A stretch of DNA of 20,263 nt from a virus. Numbering within the stretch: position 1 is the stretch's first letter; every line of letters begins with the position of its first letter. The notes below the pieces were generated by a model, which was not told the origin of the DNA, did no database searches, and saw nothing but the letters and a program-made list of their open reading frames with translations. The stretch spans positions 1 through 20,263 of the IMG/VR virus record IMGVR_UViG_3300021410_000072, one strand, 5' to 3'. The position numbers and the translations under genes were made by a program. This document shows positions 1 through 10,189 of the stretch, piece after piece.

Positions 1-237
1 TCACTTTGTCGGCAAGCCTTGCAGCGTCTCCGCCCAATCGCTCATATTCCGCGACACAGCTTGCAAGTACTCCGATCCAGTCGGCTCCGGCGTCATCAGA
101 TCCGCCGCCGGCATTGGCAGTCGAGGGGCGACGGCGTAGCTGCTCGAGCAGCCCGTCAATGCGAGCGCGCTGAGCAGCGACAGTTTTTTGAGCAGTTTCA
201 CGCGCCAACACGGCGCCACGGTATTGAGCATCGGCAC
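1..237 (-). CDS. Rz1: Rz1-like outer-membrane lipoprotein spanin, nested in Rz
   Basis: A 78-residue lipoprotein in a different frame inside Rz. It has a basic n-region (RVKLLKK), a hydrophobic core and the lipobox LTGC with the acylated Cys at residue 30, followed by a short Ser/Pro-rich mature part (APRLPMPAADLMTPEPTG). Rz1 sits in the outer membrane and pairs with Rz to bridge the periplasm. A GTG at 237 is the best start: AGGAGG lies 6 bases before it. The ATG at 231 is a second choice with longer spacing, and the frame extends to 276. The stop is at the left edge (positions 1-3). Confidence 0.88.
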   Translation of the reverse strand: MPMLNTVAPCWRVKLLKKLSLLSALALTGCSSSYAVAPRLPMPAADLMTPEPTGSEYLQAVSRNMSDWAETLQGLPTK

Positions 238-424
238 GATCGGCCTCCTGTTGTGTTGCTCGTTCGATGTCGGCATTCAGTAGGCGCGCATCAAACTGCG
301 CCTTTGCATATCCCTGAGTGAACTGCTGGCTTCGGTCGTAGCGCCAGGCACACACGGCCAAGGCGAGCGCAACCAGAACAACAAGCGCCGGCCACCATCG
401 GCGAATCACGGCGTATCCAACCAT
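1..424 (-). CDS. Rz: Rz-like inner-membrane spanin (partial, runs off left edge)
   Basis: The frame runs from the ATG at 424 and is still open at the window edge; 141 residues are visible, so the stop lies to the left. The protein starts with a short basic region and one membrane helix (about 10-27, WWPALVVLVALALAVCAW), then a charged periplasmic helix including GYAKAQFDARLLNADIERAT and AQKTVAAQRARIDGLLEQL. This is the layout of an inner-membrane spanin, which with Rz1 fuses inner and outer membranes in the last lysis step. Rz1 is nested inside it in another frame. The start overlaps the preceding gene by 19 bases. Confidence 0.85.
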   Translation of the reverse strand, partial: MVGYAVIRRWWPALVVLVALALAVCAWRYDRSQQFTQGYAKAQFDARLLNADIERATQQEADRADAQYRGAVLARETAQKTVAAQRARIDGLLEQLRRRPSTANAGGGSDDAGADWIGVLASCVAEYERLGGDAARLADKV

Positions 425-4102: not shown

Positions 4103-7100
4103 TCAATATCCCTGAGAGATGTGATTCATTTGTCGGGAGACCGACGTGTTGCCGTTATAGAAAACGATGCTGAAACCCTGCTCGCTCTGGTTTGAGAGCA
4201 CGTAGCGGTCGCCGTTTACGGCGTTGAGCCAAGTGATCTGCACGTTGGGCGTGGCGTGGAACCACTTGTCGTAGACGATGTGCAACCCGCCCACAGGCAC
4301 AGTCACGAGCTCGCCGCGCTGGATCAGGTCCGGCACGTCCACCGTCCAAGTGAACGACTCGACGAAGGGCACGATCAGCGGATTGCGCGTCTCCAGCACC
4401 AAGCGGACGTCAAAAAAGCGAGCGTTGATCAGCCCGGGCACGTAATCCACCCAATCCGACCATTCGCCAGCGTTCACCGCGCTACGGATCTGCGGCTGGA
4501 TGCTGTAGAACTGCATGCTCGACGCGTTGAGGATGTCGTCTTCCGCGAAAATGTCTTCGACGGAGAGGACGTTCTCGCCGAAATTGAGCGCATAGGCGTC
4601 AATGTCGAAGTCCACGCGCACCGGCGCCGGATACCCGATGTCGATGATGTTCGCGTCGTTCGTCCCGTATATGCCCCTGCCGCTCACGCCCCCATACCAG
4701 AGCACCTCGTCGACTGCGAACACATCGTCCACAGCAAGCATGTCGCCGATACCGCGCAGCGTCAGCTTGTTGTCGATAATGGCAGCGCCACCTTGCATCC
4801 TGCTGCCAGAACCAGTCCAGAGCATGGATGCGCCCGATAATGGGGCAATAGCCGTTGTGATCGTTGCGCCGGAGCGGGTGTAGTCGGTGATCGTGCGGGC
4901 AACATTCACGGGCGCAGAGAGATAAGGGGTCGGCAGGCTTCCCGACTCGAACTGTGCCCCCCACGCGTAAATGCCGCTACTCCCGTCTCCCAAATAAGTT
5001 GCACTGCCGCCGAAAGCGGCTTTCGTGTAGATCGATGGGGCGATCGTCAAATCGGAAGCGGTCTGGATGATCGTGACCGTGGTAGAGATTCGCCACCAAC
5101 CGTCGGGGAACTGTGTAATTACCGTCCTGCTAGGATCTGTGGCGGTGAAATTCCCAGTGAGCAAGTCGATGACGACGGTGTTGCTCGCCACCTGATTCGC
5201 AAAGTTACCGATCTGGATTTGCGCGACGCTTCGCTCAGCTGCCTTGGCAAAAATACTCCAGGTCCATGTCGTGCCACCAGCACGTGGAAATCCTCGCGAC
5301 ACGATGTGCGTGGAGTTCGTCGAGTTCTCGGTGATCTTGTTTGCGGTCAATGTACCGTCAGGAGCAAGCGCCTGAGCAGACTGCACCGTAACTCCGGACT
5401 TGCTCCAGAAAGTCGGTGTGAAGTCCTCTGTATACTGCGCAAAGTTCGTCCGCGCCGTCCGATACAGCAGCTGCCGGCCCTGCCAATCCTCGCGGTAGAT
5501 CACCGGCTCGCCGTCGACTGTGGTGACCGGCAAGCTGAACGCCGTCCGGTTACCATCACCGCCCCCGAAGCGGGCCGGATCTGTGGCCACCACCGGCACG
5601 GTCTCCGCGCCGCCCAGGTCACCAGTCCAGCCGGGATGCTCGGCCTTGGTGACCAGCACGTTGCGCACGAGCGTGGCACCGGCCACTTCGAGCGAGTCGG
5701 CAGGGCCGTACAGCACCTGCCCTTTCGGCGCGTCAAACCGGGCCGACACGAAATAGCGGCCGTTGCCCACCGCGAGCGACTCGACGCTGTTGGTGATGGC
5801 GATCGTCTGCGAGTCATCCCAGGACGCGCCCATACGCAATTCGTACCGCGGCGCGCGTAGATCGACCACCTGGTTCCAACGCAGAACCGTCAAGCCGTCG
5901 CGGTAGACGCTGGTCAGCCCGTCGACGGCCGGCAATGGGATTAACAGCCCGACCACGCTGTATTCCGCATACTTCGGCGTGCCCTGCCCTGTCAGGGTCA
6001 GCGGCGTCACCTGCGCCTGGATCAGGTCACCGGTGTGCGCCTTAAGGACGAAGTTGCGTTCAGTCGTCTCGACCGATGAATAGAACCGGCTGTTGATGTT
6101 GAAGTCGATACGCACGCGGCCAGCCGACGACAACACGTAATCCAGCCGCACCTCGATGTCGTCGTTGCCGACCCCCTGGATCGTCTCGGCGAAGGTGATG
6201 GCGAATACCGTGCTGCCGATCAGTGCGCCGTCGCGCGGCGGCGTGTAGGCGTATGGGTTCCACTCGGCGTTGTAGTAATTCGGGTCATCATCGACGGCCT
6301 CGAAACGCACGCCCTCGTCGTTCAACGGCTGAACGTGCACGATCTTCAGCCGGCGGCCCGGCGTGGTCAGCGGATCGAACTGCCAAGCGAAGTCCAGCGC
6401 GGACGTATACGTGTCGGTGATCTCATCAGGCGCCAGAAAGCCAGCAGGCCAGGCGCTCAACACGTTGACGCGATCCGTCTCGCCGGCGGTCCAGCCCACT
6501 TGGATGTTGGCCATGGCACCATGCGGCGTGCGCAGCGTCATCCAGGCCGGTGCGCCGGTGATGGGTACGAAACGATCAAGTATGAGAAGTTGCCGCGTTC
6601 CACCTTTCAAGCGGCCGGAGTAACCCCACACCGTCAGATCGTGGCTTGCCTGCACCACGTCGCCGCGCGTGCACATCATGCCCTCGATGTCCATTTCCCA
6701 GACCACCCGGCGACGGTGGAAAAGCTGGCTTGCGGCGATCAGATTCGTCTCGCGTGCGGCAAGCTCAGGCGAAATGGTCCCCTCGAGCTCGAATTTCTGC
6801 GGGCTGTTCAGGCGCGGCGCGCCCGGCACCGCCACGCGGATCTCGTCGGCCTCCCAGTTTCGTGCCGGGTTGATGAACGTACCGATTATCTCGTCCACGG
6901 TGGCGTCGGCATACGACACCTCGAATGATCCTGCCTTGATGTTGAACGGGCCGACGATGCCGACATGCGGCTGGTTCGCCGCATCCCAGATCACGCCGAG
7001 CTTGCCCGACTGCCACGTGTAAGAGGCACGGCCGGCACGGGCGATCATGGTCAGCATCTCGTGCGCCGTCTTCTGTTGCGTCAGCACATAATCGAACGTC

Positions 7101-8857
7101 AGACCCTTGCTTTCGCACCACGCCGCCCAGGCGAAAATGCCTTGGTAATCGATTTGTTCAGCGGCAAGCCCTGCGCCCCACAGCCGATTGCCTGCTGCGT
7201 CCGACATGCCCACGGAGAAGTACAGGAACCACCAGGCCGGATTGCTGGTCGCGCGCCACTCCCACGCCGCGCCCGTCCACACCCAGCAATGCGCCTGCAC
7301 CATGGCCGATAGCTGGTTAATCGATCCGTTCAGTTGCGCGGAGGCCCGCAGACGGATGCCCAGCCGAGCCTGCCCCGTGTAATCAGTCGGCGTGTCCTGA
7401 TAGGCGCGGATCTGCGCAACCGACACCGCGTTCGATTCCGTATTCGTCGACACGTCTGGCTGCATTTTGCGCAGACGCACCTCGTACTGGCCATGGCCAG
7501 TGTTGAAGCTGATGGTGATGCGCACCGGCTTGTTGGACGAGCCCGTCAGCTTCACCCCGGTGTTGGTCGTGTAGCCGATCAGCGGATCCGGCGCGACACC
7601 AGACCACGGACGGCCCAACTGGAACGGGTGCGGCAGCCAGCGCCATTCGTAGGTGACGCAGACCTGAACCTGGCCGTAGTTGTCGCCCGAACCGGTCTCA
7701 ACCATGCGGCACTCTTGGTACTGCTCGCCGTTGACGTGATCGCCAGCGTTCAGCGACCCGAAGCGGATCTGTTCCCAATAGCGCAACGCGCCGCTATCCC
7801 CGCTTTCCTGCTCCTTGTATTTTCCAAGCGCCCAGTAATGCGTCGCGTAGATCGGATCGGTGTATCCGCCAACCGGCGTCCAGTTGCCTTCCGGATAGCT
7901 TCGGTACTCGATCGCTACTTCCACCGATCGCGGTTCAAACGCACCGGTTTGCGCGTTGATGTTGTAAAGCGCAGCAACGAGCTCGAGCTGGACGTGATAG
8001 ACGTCTTTCGGCGTGGTGCGCGCCGTCCACCCGTCCACATACAACAGATCAAAGCCTGCCAGCGTATCAACGTTGTCCGGCACGATCGACAGTTGGCCGG
8101 TGTAATCCGACCGCTGGATCGTCACACCCTGGTAGCTCAGGATGTCTGTGTCACCGATGCGTAGATCGCTGATTTCGAGATCCTGCTGCAGGCCGAAGTG
8201 AAACGCCTGGTTCAGGAACTGATCGTCGCCGTAATAGAAGGTGTGCGGGTTGCCGGCCAAGTCGGGATAGACCTTATGCCGGCCGAACACGAACATCATG
8301 GGCTCGAACGGGCGGGCGCGGTTCGATGCCGCCCCGATTGTAAAACTCGGCGCGTCGCTTTCCTGCTGGGCAAGCTTCGCCGTCACCGGCTTCGGCAGCG
8401 GAATAAGGGCGTTTACCAGAAGCGATCCGCCAATCATCACGGCAGAGGCTGCCGCGGCACCGGCCACTGCCATGCCCGTGGTAACAGTGCCAGCAGCCGC
8501 ACCAGCATAGGCTCCGTAGGCACTCGCCGCCCAAGCGCCTGCGCCAGCCGAGGCCACTGCGATTGCTACGAGAGCGACTGTCCGAAGCACCTTATTCCCG
8601 CCGCCCCCTCCCTGCATGCGTGCGCGGATAGTGACCAGATCTCCTGGACGTGGAATCAGGCGCGCCCAAAGATGCTCTGGCACCAGATACCCGTTGTGAT
8701 GCACATAGACAGGACCGGTCGGGATCGCGATAGCATTGCGCAACACGTATGCGCCAAGCGTTTCGCGAGGAAGGAATTCTGCGAAGCAGACTTCGCGTCC
8801 GTCTGCCAGCAACGCATGTGGCATGGATACGAGGCGCGCGCTCTCGATCATTTCCAT
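4103..8857 (-). CDS. Tail tip / host-specificity protein (lambda gpJ-like, TipJ type)
   Basis: A 1584-residue central tail tip protein that contacts the host receptor. Residues about 1-80 look like a beta-grasp domain as in lambda gpI; a Gly run (83-87) and two hydrophobic stretches (about 89-110 and 118-150) follow. Residues about 570-735 form the baseplate-hub-like (Phage-tail_3) core, including GIFAWAAWCESKGLTFDYV and TRGDVVQASHDLTVWGYSG. A fibronectin-like segment (about 977-1059) follows. Residues about 1135-1326 are a lectin-like module beginning ARTNFAQYTEDF and ending in YAWGAQFESG then LPTPYL. The last 250 residues contain an acidic repeat and a strand pair (PNVQITWLNAVNGDRY) like H-type lectins. 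The frame is open to 8929; 8857 is preferred because GAGGG lies about 9 bases upstream, with ATG at 8851 (ATGA with the peptidase stop) as the alternative. Confidence 0.92.
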   Translation of the reverse strand: MEMIESARLVSMPHALLADGREVCFAEFLPRETLGAYVLRNAIAIPTGPVYVHHNGYLVPEHLWARLIPRPGDLVTIRARMQGGGGGNKVLRTVALVAIAVASAGAGAWAASAYGAYAGAAAGTVTTGMAVAGAAAASAVMIGGSLLVNALIPLPKPVTAKLAQQESDAPSFTIGAASNRARPFEPMMFVFGRHKVYPDLAGNPHTFYYGDDQFLNQAFHFGLQQDLEISDLRIGDTDILSYQGVTIQRSDYTGQLSIVPDNVDTLAGFDLLYVDGWTARTTPKDVYHVQLELVAALYNINAQTGAFEPRSVEVAIEYRSYPEGNWTPVGGYTDPIYATHYWALGKYKEQESGDSGALRYWEQIRFGSLNAGDHVNGEQYQECRMVETGSGDNYGQVQVCVTYEWRWLPHPFQLGRPWSGVAPDPLIGYTTNTGVKLTGSSNKPVRITISFNTGHGQYEVRLRKMQPDVSTNTESNAVSVAQIRAYQDTPTDYTGQARLGIRLRASAQLNGSINQLSAMVQAHCWVWTGAAWEWRATSNPAWWFLYFSVGMSDAAGNRLWGAGLAAEQIDYQGIFAWAAWCESKGLTFDYVLTQQKTAHEMLTMIARAGRASYTWQSGKLGVIWDAANQPHVGIVGPFNIKAGSFEVSYADATVDEIIGTFINPARNWEADEIRVAVPGAPRLNSPQKFELEGTISPELAARETNLIAASQLFHRRRVVWEMDIEGMMCTRGDVVQASHDLTVWGYSGRLKGGTRQLLILDRFVPITGAPAWMTLRTPHGAMANIQVGWTAGETDRVNVLSAWPAGFLAPDEITDTYTSALDFAWQFDPLTTPGRRLKIVHVQPLNDEGVRFEAVDDDPNYYNAEWNPYAYTPPRDGALIGSTVFAITFAETIQGVGNDDIEVRLDYVLSSAGRVRIDFNINSRFYSSVETTERNFVLKAHTGDLIQAQVTPLTLTGQGTPKYAEYSVVGLLIPLPAVDGLTSVYRDGLTVLRWNQVVDLRAPRYELRMGASWDDSQTIAITNSVESLAVGNGRYFVSARFDAPKGQVLYGPADSLEVAGATLVRNVLVTKAEHPGWTGDLGGAETVPVVATDPARFGGGDGNRTAFSLPVTTVDGEPVIYREDWQGRQLLYRTARTNFAQYTEDFTPTFWSKSGVTVQSAQALAPDGTLTANKITENSTNSTHIVSRGFPRAGGTTWTWSIFAKAAERSVAQIQIGNFANQVASNTVVIDLLTGNFTATDPSRTVITQFPDGWWRISTTVTIIQTASDLTIAPSIYTKAAFGGSATYLGDGSSGIYAWGAQFESGSLPTPYLSAPVNVARTITDYTRSGATITTAIAPLSGASMLWTGSGSRMQGGAAIIDNKLTLRGIGDMLAVDDVFAVDEVLWYGGVSGRGIYGTNDANIIDIGYPAPVRVDFDIDAYALNFGENVLSVEDIFAEDDILNASSMQFYSIQPQIRSAVNAGEWSDWVDYVPGLINARFFDVRLVLETRNPLIVPFVESFTWTVDVPDLIQRGELVTVPVGGLHIVYDKWFHATPNVQITWLNAVNGDRYVLSNQSEQGFSIVFYNGNTSVSRQMNHISQGY

Positions 8858-9231
8858 GCGTAGAAGCCCTCGATTTTGTAGTGGACGCGAATCATTTCGC
8901 GTAGCTTTTGACGGATCACGAATCCGCAACCTTGATCAGCGTGTAACACCCACCACTCGCCCGAGAGCCAGCACATTACCCCGATATGGCATGTGCGCCC
9001 GCGCCCAACAAATAGTGCTGGCTGACCGTCAATGGGATAGTCGATGCGATCGGCAAGATCGTCCTTGCTGGAATGAATCTGCACCGCTTGGTTGCGCAGC
9101 CCTGTGGCATGGACGTCGGGCAGCCGGCACTCCTTCCGCAAGACATCTCGAGCTACCCTCGCCGCCAAGGCGGCGCAGTCGCCAACGCCGGGGATATATG
9201 GCTCCCCCACATACTTCTCAGACCAGTGCAT
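8848..9231 (-). CDS. NlpC/P60-family tail peptidase (lambda gpK-like)
   Basis: A 127-residue cysteine peptidase of the NlpC/P60 type at the gpK position; it probably cuts peptidoglycan stem peptides or processes tip proteins as DNA is injected. The catalytic Cys is Cys19 in GVGDCAALAARVARDV, His82 lies in TCHIGVMCWL, and a third polar residue may be His97 in WVLHADQGCGF. Lambda gpK also has an N-terminal Mov34/JAMM-type domain; here it is absent and the protein is the NlpC domain only. The start at 9231 has only a weak ribosome-binding site (CTGGA). The end overlaps the start of the tip protein by a few bases. Confidence 0.85.
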   Translation of the reverse strand: MHWSEKYVGEPYIPGVGDCAALAARVARDVLRKECRLPDVHATGLRNQAVQIHSSKDDLADRIDYPIDGQPALFVGRGRTCHIGVMCWLSGEWWVLHADQGCGFVIRQKLREMIRVHYKIEGFYAWK

Positions 9232-9244
9232 ATCGTCCAGGCAA

Positions 9245-9274
9245 TAAAAAACCGCCCGAAGGCGGCTGTTTTTT
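9245..9274 (-). terminator. Intrinsic terminator after the lipoprotein gene
   Basis: Stem CCGCC/GGCGG with loop CGAA (9252-9265). On the minus strand it is followed directly by six T (9251-9246); on the plus strand a T-run follows after three bases, so it could work both ways. It begins right beside the lipoprotein stop and lies 14 bases from the peptidase start. Confidence 0.85.
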
Positions 9275-9659
9275 AGCGGCAGGCTGGCTGCCCAGTTTCG
9301 ATCGATCGCCTCACGGCACCGATCTGTTTGTCATCCCATACACCTTTGCCCCAAACCGTCACCTTGACTTCGGAGGTTTGGTCGCCGGTAGAGCGGATAT
9401 CGACTCTTTCCTGCGCAGCAGTCACGAGGCTCTGGTAGGTGAGGCGAAGCACTGCAGTTCTATTGTCGGTGTACAGGTTGCCAGTAACTCCAGCGTCATT
9501 CCCACAGAAGCGCATTTGCTGGTCTGCCCTTCGATAGGCCTCCTGATACCCCACTGGAACCGTAAACGTCTCTGACGGATAGGTTCCGTCTGGTGTCATA
9601 CCAGTAACGCAGCCAGCAGATAAAACCGCCAAACCTATCGCCATAAATTTTCTGTACAT
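9273..9659 (-). CDS. Small phage lipoprotein, moron candidate
   Basis: A 128-residue predicted lipoprotein. The signal peptide has a basic start (MYRK), a hydrophobic core and the lipobox LSAGC with the modified Cys at residue 17. The mature part contains VGYQEAYRRADQQMRFCGND, LYTDNRTAVLRLTYQSLV and a basic end RRSIETGQPACR; two Cys (about 52 and 127) could form a disulphide. The frame is open to 9719, but the ATG at 9659 has GGAG six bases upstream and gives a proper signal peptide. It interrupts the L-K order of tail genes and is followed directly by its own terminator, as expected for a cargo gene expressed from the prophage. A role in altering the cell surface or excluding other phages is possible, but nothing in the sequence proves it. 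Confidence 0.8.
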   Translation of the reverse strand: MYRKFMAIGLAVLSAGCVTGMTPDGTYPSETFTVPVGYQEAYRRADQQMRFCGNDAGVTGNLYTDNRTAVLRLTYQSLVTAAQERVDIRSTGDQTSEVKVTVWGKGVWDDKQIGAVRRSIETGQPACR

Positions 9660-9669
9660 GTTTTCTCCA

Positions 9670-9693
9670 CTATGGACGGAAAATCTACCATAG
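9670..9693. repeat. Inverted repeat upstream of the lipoprotein gene
   Basis: CTATGG at 9670-9675 is mirrored by CCATAG at 9688-9693 across 12 AT-rich bases; one more base on each flank also matches. It lies between the L-like gene and the lipoprotein ribosome-binding site. It could be a small operator or mRNA hairpin. A TTGATA sequence lies just upstream on the minus strand, but no good -10 box is found at the right distance, so I do not call a promoter. Confidence 0.3.
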
Positions 9694-9715
9694 CGCGTAT
9701 CAACTGCAGAAATTC

Positions 9716-10189
9716 TCACCAGAGCCCGGGCGCCGTAGCAGGCGTGAATGTCTTTGCCACGGCAGCACGGCCAAGTGTGTTGACGAAACCCAGCTGAGCC
9801 GACACCTTCTGGTTGTCGATCTTCATGGCCGTCATGTCCATGGTCATGTCGTACTCAAGCGTATTGGGGTCGCCCGGCAACGCCATCATCATCCGACATT
9901 TAGCCCCCTGACCACCTCGGCTGACCTCAAGCCACTGCGTTAACTCCTGGCCGATATTGTCGACCGAAAGCGTGGCCTGCGGGAGTTGACCCTCGATGTC
10001 ATCAGGCAACATCAATTCGAACGGGCACTTCAGAAACGTCTTGCCCTGGCTTACCAGGTCCTGGGTATCGTTGACCACGCGCACTGGCACTGCGAGTTCA
10101 GCATGCGTGATTTCCAGCATGACCAACATCGGTTCATTTACGCTGGTCGCCAGGACGTTCTTACGGCCATTCTGGGATAGGTTGCGCAT
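9716..10189 (-). CDS. DUF1833-like minor tail protein (gpL position)
   Basis: A 157-residue protein resembling the DUF1833 phage family, found after the M-like gene where lambda has gpL. It carries MLVMLEITHAELAVPVRVVND near the start (about residues 21-41), a GKTFLKCPFELMLPDD segment and LPQATLSVDNIGQELTQWLE. There is a single Cys in PFELM's neighbourhood and one more at the CRMMMALPGDP strand; the cluster of four Cys that binds iron-sulphur in lambda gpL is not seen. It is likely a tip-complex structural protein. Start at 10189 shares one base with the M-like stop. Confidence 0.8.
   Translation of the reverse strand: MRNLSQNGRKNVLATSVNEPMLVMLEITHAELAVPVRVVNDTQDLVSQGKTFLKCPFELMLPDDIEGQLPQATLSVDNIGQELTQWLEVSRGGQGAKCRMMMALPGDPNTLEYDMTMDMTAMKIDNQKVSAQLGFVNTLGRAAVAKTFTPATAPGLW

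What the first reader, a model, noticed from the sequence alone, without database searches (positions are those of the whole stretch)
9245..9719. Lipoprotein cassette interrupting the minor tail genes
A lipobox protein sits between L-like and K-like tail genes. It has its own ribosome-binding site, an inverted repeat upstream and an intrinsic terminator abutting its stop, the layout of a moron that can be expressed from a prophage. Phage lipoproteins in such places sometimes block infection by other phages. No function is proven here.
Basis: partly seen in the sequence, partly recalled or inferred. Interest (0 to 1): 0.55.

Follow-up and report, generated by a model that had tools for sequence, protein, structure and literature searches.

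The report
Prophage lipoprotein cassette between tail genes
A small lipoprotein gene with its own stop signal sits between two tail genes of a phage; some relatives keep other lipoproteins or defence genes in the same gap, so it is probably extra cargo that shields the host cell from rival phages, which still has to be tested.

Summary
The feature is real. The minus-strand gene 9659-9273 encodes a 128-aa lipoprotein of a curated family without known function (NF046053, 114 bits, cut-off 50), between an L-like and a K-like tail gene. It has a GGAG ribosome site and a hairpin with a T run 5 nt past its stop. Instead, TRTGGTARAT, an extended -10-like motif, is shared by five related cassettes.

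Presence varies as for a moron. Of 83 loci with both genes mapped, 71 have less than 250 bp between L and K and 12 have more. Eight of those 12 hold a lipoprotein: the window, L042 and L044 (same family), L043 (broken copy), L045 (unrelated, same motif) and L017, L018, L049 (opposite strand). L022 holds the Kiwa gene kwaB. Family members also occur at M-L and K-J; a distant one lies beside a weakly CI-like gene.

Best reading: a lysogenic-conversion moron acting in superinfection exclusion at the outer membrane. The moron part is well supported. Expression in the lysogen and exclusion are inferred, with tested precedent in mEpimmI coliphages (PMC11893012). New variant of a known kind.

The parts
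9273..9659 (-). lipoprotein gene, 128 aa, lipobox LSAGC (Cys17), NF046053 'BPTD_2524 family lipoprotein'
   Evidence: predicted fold b-a-b-b-b-b-a, pLDDT 85.7
9665..9668 (-). ribosome-binding site GGAG, 5 nt before the ATG
   Evidence: sequence
9683..9692 (-). TATGGTAGAT, extended -10-like motif TRTGGTARAT; the only copy in the window (0.01 expected), shared with the L042-L045 cassettes
9250..9267 (-). terminator-like hairpin with T run, 5 nt past the stop
   Evidence: like hairpin in L042-L044
   Evidence: 184 of 2000 shuffles, absent in six relatives
9716..10189 (-). upstream flank: L-like minor tail gene (DUF1833)
8848..9231 (-). downstream flank: K-like minor tail gene; link to the NlpC/P60-type K of L001 only indirect (both match one gene of L050)

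Best explanation
The cassette is a moron: an extra gene with its own start and stop signals, set into the junction between tail genes L and K. Shown: a lipoprotein-family gene with ribosome site and terminator-like hairpin; the junction is closed in most of the relatives examined and in others holds different lipoproteins, immunity-regulator genes or kwaB. Inferred: it is transcribed from the TRTGGTARAT motif while the prophage is silent, the hairpin keeps that transcript out of K and J, and late transcription passes the hairpin by antitermination. Inferred: the protein goes to the inner face of the outer membrane (residue +2 after Cys is Val, not Asp; sorting rule recalled) and there disturbs a surface receptor or entry complex used by related phages, so the lysogen excludes superinfection, working like T5 Llp, Rtp45 and the mEpimmI Lpp proteins.
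For: Membership of a lipoprotein family at 114 bits against a cut-off of 50. L-K gap under 250 bp in 71 of 83 loci, 250 bp or more in 12, eight with a lipoprotein (window included). In L042 and L044 the lipoprotein is 40% and 36% identical to the window's while L is 77% and 67% and K 69% and 72%: allele exchange between conserved flanks. An unrelated lipoprotein in the same gap (L045) carries the same upstream motif. Three lipoproteins (L049, L017, L018) lie antisense to the tail genes, so they need promoters of their own. Family members sit at M-L in L001 and K-J in L002, unrelated lipoproteins at K-J in L027, L090, L091. A distant relative in a Nitrosovibrio prophage is antisense to the tail genes and beside a weakly CI-like gene. 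Cargo beside or instead of it concerns phage competition: Arc-like genes plus a Rha/KilAC antirepressor in L044, Arc-like genes in L045, KwaB in L022 (PADLOC E 1e-19). Integrase in 5 of 5 records over 30 kb with a family member or its distant relative. Window against L043: pN 0.20, pS 0.88. Tested precedent: PMC11893012 (section 3.7 read whole, passages of the discussion).
Against: No expression or plating data. No -35 box seen; the motif was written down after seeing the five cassettes, and in L042-L044 part of it is the end of gene L. L042 and L044 bear the same IMG dataset number, so probably two prophages of one host; their J proteins are 84% identical yet the lipoproteins 34%: if each blocks J's receptor, double lysogeny needs explaining. 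No PADLOC match; no Llp or other exclusion lipoprotein among the three weak hits of a profile search of solved structures. The L043 copy has an in-frame stop. The records of L045 and L049 gave no integrase or resolvase match. The window record, a 20-kb piece, has no integrase match either, so temperate life is inferred from relatives.
Confidence: 0.6

Rival explanations
1. Lysogenic-conversion moron, but not for phage exclusion: an outer-membrane lipoprotein that changes the envelope, stress survival or adhesion of the host.
For: The predicted fold is nearest to Flpp3 (Z 11.4, rmsd 2.5, 94 aligned), with the BamC N-domain lower (Z 7.2, rmsd 2.6, 82 aligned), both bacterial lipoproteins. The family name looks like a Bordetella locus tag (recalled), so host copies may exist (not traced).
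Against: Other cargo in the same gap concerns phage competition. No genome of 398 and none of 299 searched had a match over the cut-off, so it is not a common host gene in those two groups.
Confidence: 0.22
2. Late-expressed gene: made only during the lytic cycle, to block the receptor in infected cells or on debris, as T5 Llp does for a lytic phage.
For: In the window, L001, L002 and L042-L044 it is co-directional with the tail genes; T5 Llp belongs to a lytic phage (PMC9586334, abstract and first part of the introduction).
Against: Antisense lipoproteins in three loci, and a distant relative antisense beside a weakly CI-like gene in Nitrosovibrio; a shared promoter-like motif and a hairpin set it apart from the operon.
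Confidence: 0.12
3. Structural or assembly part of the tail, or an o-spanin-like lysis lipoprotein.
For: It lies inside the tail gene cluster.
Against: L-K gap under 250 bp in 71 of 83 loci; broken in L043; a separate Rz1-like spanin is at 1-276, and the lipoprotein's two PHROG hits are weak (E 0.028 and 0.48) and of unknown function.
Confidence: 0.04

Closest known systems
NF046053 BPTD_2524 family lipoprotein (NCBIfam)
   Same: whole-length match, 114 bits, cut-off 50
   Different: the library gives no function; a place in phage tail clusters is not part of its definition
Lpp021/Lpp010 exclusion lipoproteins of mEpimmI coliphages (PMC11893012)
   Same: small lipoproteins of several sequence types in the structural gene cluster of temperate siphophages; shown there to exclude phages (section 3.7 read, passages of the discussion)
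   Different: gp81 of mEp021 (219 nt) is antisense and lies behind J, not at L-K; sequence relation to this protein not tested
T5 Llp, Rtp45 and Cor receptor-blocking lipoproteins
   Same: phage proteins that act on outer-membrane receptors and stop adsorption (abstract of PMC9586334; passages of PMC12685063; Cor in a passage of PMC11436027)
   Different: Rtp45 is about 6 kDa; no Llp among the hits of the profile search of solved structures; T5 is lytic
HK97 gp15 moron and P22 SieA
   Same: prophage-encoded exclusion proteins; gp15 is called a moron in a cited title (passages of PMC10883804)
   Different: SieA is an inner-membrane protein and gp15 is predicted to be one; they block DNA injection
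Defence hotspots of P2-like and P4-like elements (passages of PMC9122126 and PMC9519451)
   Same: a gap between two conserved phage genes with high turnover of anti-phage cargo
   Different: the first P2 gap lies between the replication endonuclease and portal genes; the second holds fun, which from memory lies in the P2 tail cluster, so a tail-cluster gap may not be new in itself; cargo here is often a lipoprotein
Flpp3 / BamC N-domain fold
   Same: predicted fold, Z 11.4 and 7.2
   Different: 8-12% identity; a shared fold shows no function

Membership tests
NF046053 BPTD_2524 family lipoprotein | whole-protein score over the curated cut-off of 50 bits | tested here: met
   114.1 bits over residues 1-128
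Moron (definition seen in a passage of PMC4378225) | extra gene inserted between two genes that are adjacent in related phages | tested here: met
   L-K gap under 250 bp in 71 of 83 loci, 250 bp or more in 12
Moron | flanked by a terminator | tested here: met
   hairpin-T site 9267-9250, like site in L042-L044; in the window alone it is not above chance
Moron | flanked by its own promoter | tested here: inconclusive
   TRTGGTARAT shared by five cassettes, 8 copies in 1.0 Mb of held sequence; no sigma-70 scan hit
Moron | base composition unlike the neighbours | tested here: inconclusive
   GC 0.540 against 0.572 (L), 0.578 (K), 0.605 (M), 0.609 (window): lower, but little
Moron | expressed from the repressed prophage | not testable with these tools
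   needs RNA from a lysogen
Superinfection-exclusion lipoprotein | lipobox and predicted envelope location | tested here: met
   LSAGC, Val at +2; the +2 sorting rule is recalled
Superinfection-exclusion lipoprotein | sequence relation to one with a solved structure (Llp) | tested here: not met
   profile search of PDB sequences gave 3 unrelated chains at E 0.05-0.25
Superinfection-exclusion lipoprotein | expression blocks phage infection | not testable with these tools
   plating assay needed
Tail structural protein | kept in related tail clusters | tested here: not met
   no room for it at this gap in 71 of 83 loci
Rz1-like o-spanin | PHROG spanin match and place next to lysis genes | tested here: not met
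   no spanin among its PHROG hits at E up to 1; the Rz1-like gene is at 1-276

The most novel reading that the evidence does not exclude
The junctions between the tail-tip genes (M-L, L-K, K-J) of lambda-like siphophages are a general exchange site for anti-superinfection cargo. Lipoproteins of several unrelated sequence types, some perhaps sharing one BamC/Flpp3-like fold, are swapped in and out there with their promoter and terminator, in either orientation, together with immunity regulators and defence systems such as Kiwa, next to the gene J that decides the receptor, so lock (J) and shield (lipoprotein) can travel together.
Probability: 0.4. Interest if true: 0.7.

Novelty: new variant of a known kind. 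Interest (0 to 1): 0.5.

Why it matters
It would turn an unnamed lipoprotein family into a testable anti-phage family and mark a small, easy-to-find place in siphophage genomes where such genes gather. My nine paper searches (open-licence PMC papers only, listings of at most 20) turned up lipoproteins in the structural cluster of one coliphage group; I saw no description of the L-K or K-J junction as a shared cargo site, and no paper with the tag BPTD_2524.

Tried and rejected
The upstream inverted repeat as an operator: rejected as chance. The GTG start at 9719: rejected (lipobox Cys would be residue 37). Family search of bacterial genomes: 398 genomes of the family of the Pandoraea genome and 299 of the order of the Luteibacter genome gave no match over the cut-off; the one weak hit in each looked like chance from the reading frames around it. 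Of 8 genomes or records searched by handle, three matched: L001, L002 and, weakly, Nitrosovibrio. The Bordetella gene that seems to name the family was not reached, so whether host copies exist is open. tblastn of phage and plasmid records found nothing for the window protein, two weak partial hits (one phage in two records) for the L002 one and none for the L001 one. Pattern scans with the lipoproteins themselves found only L001 and L002 among viral contigs and missed L042-L044, and a scan of genome contigs found no relative; so those scans do not measure how common the family is. A link by sequence between this family and the L049, L090 or DUF2846-like lipoproteins was not shown (signal-peptide regions or weak alignments). 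The L049 model (single sequence, pLDDT 65) has the same order of strands and helices as the window's, and BamC is among its better matches (Z 9.0), but unrelated domains score as high or higher; suggestive only.

Automatic enrichment test: lipoprotein rule positive in 6 of 79 gap genes against 14 of 892 others, one-sided Fisher p 0.0037. The rule or its choice of ORFs missed the lipoproteins of the window, L001, L049, L090 and L091, and did not count those of L002 and L027 as gap genes; at least some of the other 14 are chance frames; M-L gaps of Alphaproteobacteria hold large genes that look like tail genes and dilute it; loci are not independent (several contigs are near copies). A stricter rule was tried first and then changed (16 of 848 ORFs). 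The window, L001 and L002 were chosen or fetched because they carry the gene, so they say nothing about frequency; without them the L-K gap counts are 11 of 80 with an insert, seven with a lipoprotein. The Mu-type transposase search rang nowhere, controls included, so it shows nothing.

Full report
What is there. The gene runs from ATG 9659 to the stop at 9273 on the minus strand and encodes 128 residues with a lipobox at Cys17. It matches NCBIfam NF046053, 'BPTD_2524 family lipoprotein', at 114.1 bits (cut-off 50), and nothing convincing in Pfam, PHROGs or PADLOC. GGAG stands 5 nt before the start. A hairpin with a T run starts 5 nt after the stop. Upstream lies a DUF1833 minor tail gene, downstream a K-like minor tail gene.

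What does not hold. The short inverted repeat upstream occurs in 184 of 2000 dinucleotide-preserving shuffles and in none of six relatives. The sigma-70 scan finds no promoter there.

Relatives at the same place. Viral contigs with a similar L gene (29 loci) give the key comparison. L042 and L044 have members of the same family at L-K (114 and 82 bits; 40 and 36% identical to the window's), L043 a copy 70% identical with an in-frame stop. L045 has an unrelated, DUF2846-like lipoprotein there (Pfam E 2.5e-5, below the curated cut-off). L049 has a lipoprotein antisense to the tail genes. In most of the remaining loci L and K lie within 30 nt of each other. Over all 83 loci where both genes were mapped, near copies included, 12 have 250 bp or more between them: window, L017, L018, L020, L022, L023, L024, L042-L045, L049. 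Eight of these hold a lipoprotein: the window, L042, L043 (broken), L044, L045, and antisense L017, L018, L049. L022 holds a KwaB gene (Pfam E 6.4e-17, PADLOC E 1e-19) behind an unassigned ORF in the place of KwaA. L020, L023 and L024 hold genes without an assigned function. The gap is closed in eight of nine regions of phage records, K being unmapped in the ninth, L074, and in the 18 loci from two bacterial groups (0-56 nt).

Neighbouring gaps. Family members sit between M and L in L001 and between K and J in L002. In 9 of 72 loci the K-J gap is 250 bp or more; four hold lipoproteins (L002, L027, L090, L091), and I found none in the others. The L027 and L045 lipoproteins are related (32%), so a second lipoprotein type also occurs at two gaps. 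L001, L002, L027, L090 and L091 each have a hairpin-T site behind the lipoprotein; folded for L001 and L002 (z -2.88 and -3.31), seen by eye in the others.

Signals. Window, L042, L043, L044 and L045 share TRTGGTARAT, ending 23-25 nt before the start codon (coordinates). The window has one copy against 0.01 expected; the held sequence, 1.0 Mb, has eight, five of them at these cassettes. The pattern was written from these five, so only its rarity elsewhere is a test; L001 and L002 do not have it. It resembles an extended -10 promoter (TRTGnTATAAT, recalled). In L042-L044 it overlaps the stop codon of L; in the window and L045 it begins 23 and 42 nt past that stop.

Divergence. Between window and L042, L is 77%, K 69% and M 78% identical, but the lipoprotein 40%; between window and L043 all five proteins are 61-75%. 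So the low value is not simply a fast rate; exchange of alleles is the simpler account. Between window and L043, pN is 0.20 and pS 0.88, near the values of L and K (0.17 and 0.80, 0.17 and 0.77).

Lifestyle. A tyrosine integrase is in the records of L001, L042, L043, L044 and L071 (Nitrosovibrio prophage), not in those of L002 (8-kb fragment), L045, L046, L049, L052 nor in the window's; no resolvase in the five records searched (L045, L046, L048, L049, L052). In the Nitrosovibrio prophage the distant relative (27 bits, below the cut-off) is antisense to the tail genes and beside a gene with weak CI-repressor similarity (E 0.015).

Structure. The predicted model (pLDDT 85.7, pTM 0.77) is b-a-b-b-b-b-a. 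The best solved match is Flpp3 (Z 11.4, rmsd 2.5, 94 aligned), then a DUF4468 protein (Z 9.4) and many unrelated domains; the BamC N-domain has Z 7.2. The best viral model match is a protein named only 'Lipoprotein' of an uncultured phage (E 4.8e-8). Cys52 and Cys127 are invariant in six members, as a disulphide in the periplasm would need (inference).

How it probably works. Prophage transcription from the cassette's own promoter, stop at the hairpin, lipoprotein in the outer membrane, interference with entry of related phages. T5 Llp folds receptor loops inward from the periplasm (abstract of PMC9586334) and Rtp45 displaces LptD loops (passages of PMC12685063). The nearest tested case is PMC11893012 (section 3.7 read whole, passages of the discussion): 40 of 48 mEpimmI genomes carry a lipoprotein gene, in the structural cluster; Lpp021 excluded mEp021 and mEp515, Lpp010 excluded mEp010, mEp044, mEp554 and lambda, and neither excluded mEp013. 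In the mEp021 record that gene is antisense behind J, and minus-strand cargo including a putative antirepressor lies between tape measure and M and between M and L. That makes tail-gap cargo with exclusion lipoproteins a known kind; this family, these gaps and the shared promoter-like motif are the new part.

Trouble for the model. L042 and L044, probably from one host, have 84% identical J (66% identical L, 67% K) but 34% identical lipoproteins. Either the two lipoproteins have different targets, or exclusion is narrow, or exclusion is not the function.

Noticed in passing
window 14655-14640, minus strand: A second hairpin almost identical to the one behind the lipoprotein (GCCGCCTTCGGGCGGC, T run) lies before the probable tail tube gene, so this terminator type is not special to the cassette.
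   Followed up: partly
window 4103-8929, J residues about 1108-1352: J of the window and of L044 (about 1600 residues) has a stretch of about 245 residues that is missing from J of L042, L043 and L045 (about 1310-1335).
   Followed up: no
L065 2834-3522, also L066 and L070: The L gene itself is interrupted by about 690 bp; the downstream part lies in a longer open frame.
   Followed up: no
L022 9338-10778: KwaB (Kiwa defence) with an unassigned ORF before it between L and K in an Alphaproteobacterial contig.
   Followed up: partly
L044 8907-10824 and L045 8973-9555: Two Arc-like genes behind the lipoprotein in each (one of the L045 pair is weak), in L044 with a Rha/KilAC antirepressor; recalls the P22 immI region (that comparison is from memory).
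   Followed up: partly
L023 10588-10947: A predicted secreted protein made of short repeats lies between L and K.
   Followed up: no
L081 3328-3972: Xanthomonas phage phiXacJX1 has a gene between K and J whose start looks like a GIY-YIG homing endonuclease (by eye).
   Followed up: no
window 1-276, minus strand: Rz1-like spanin lipoprotein (PHROG E 1.6e-5).
   Followed up: no
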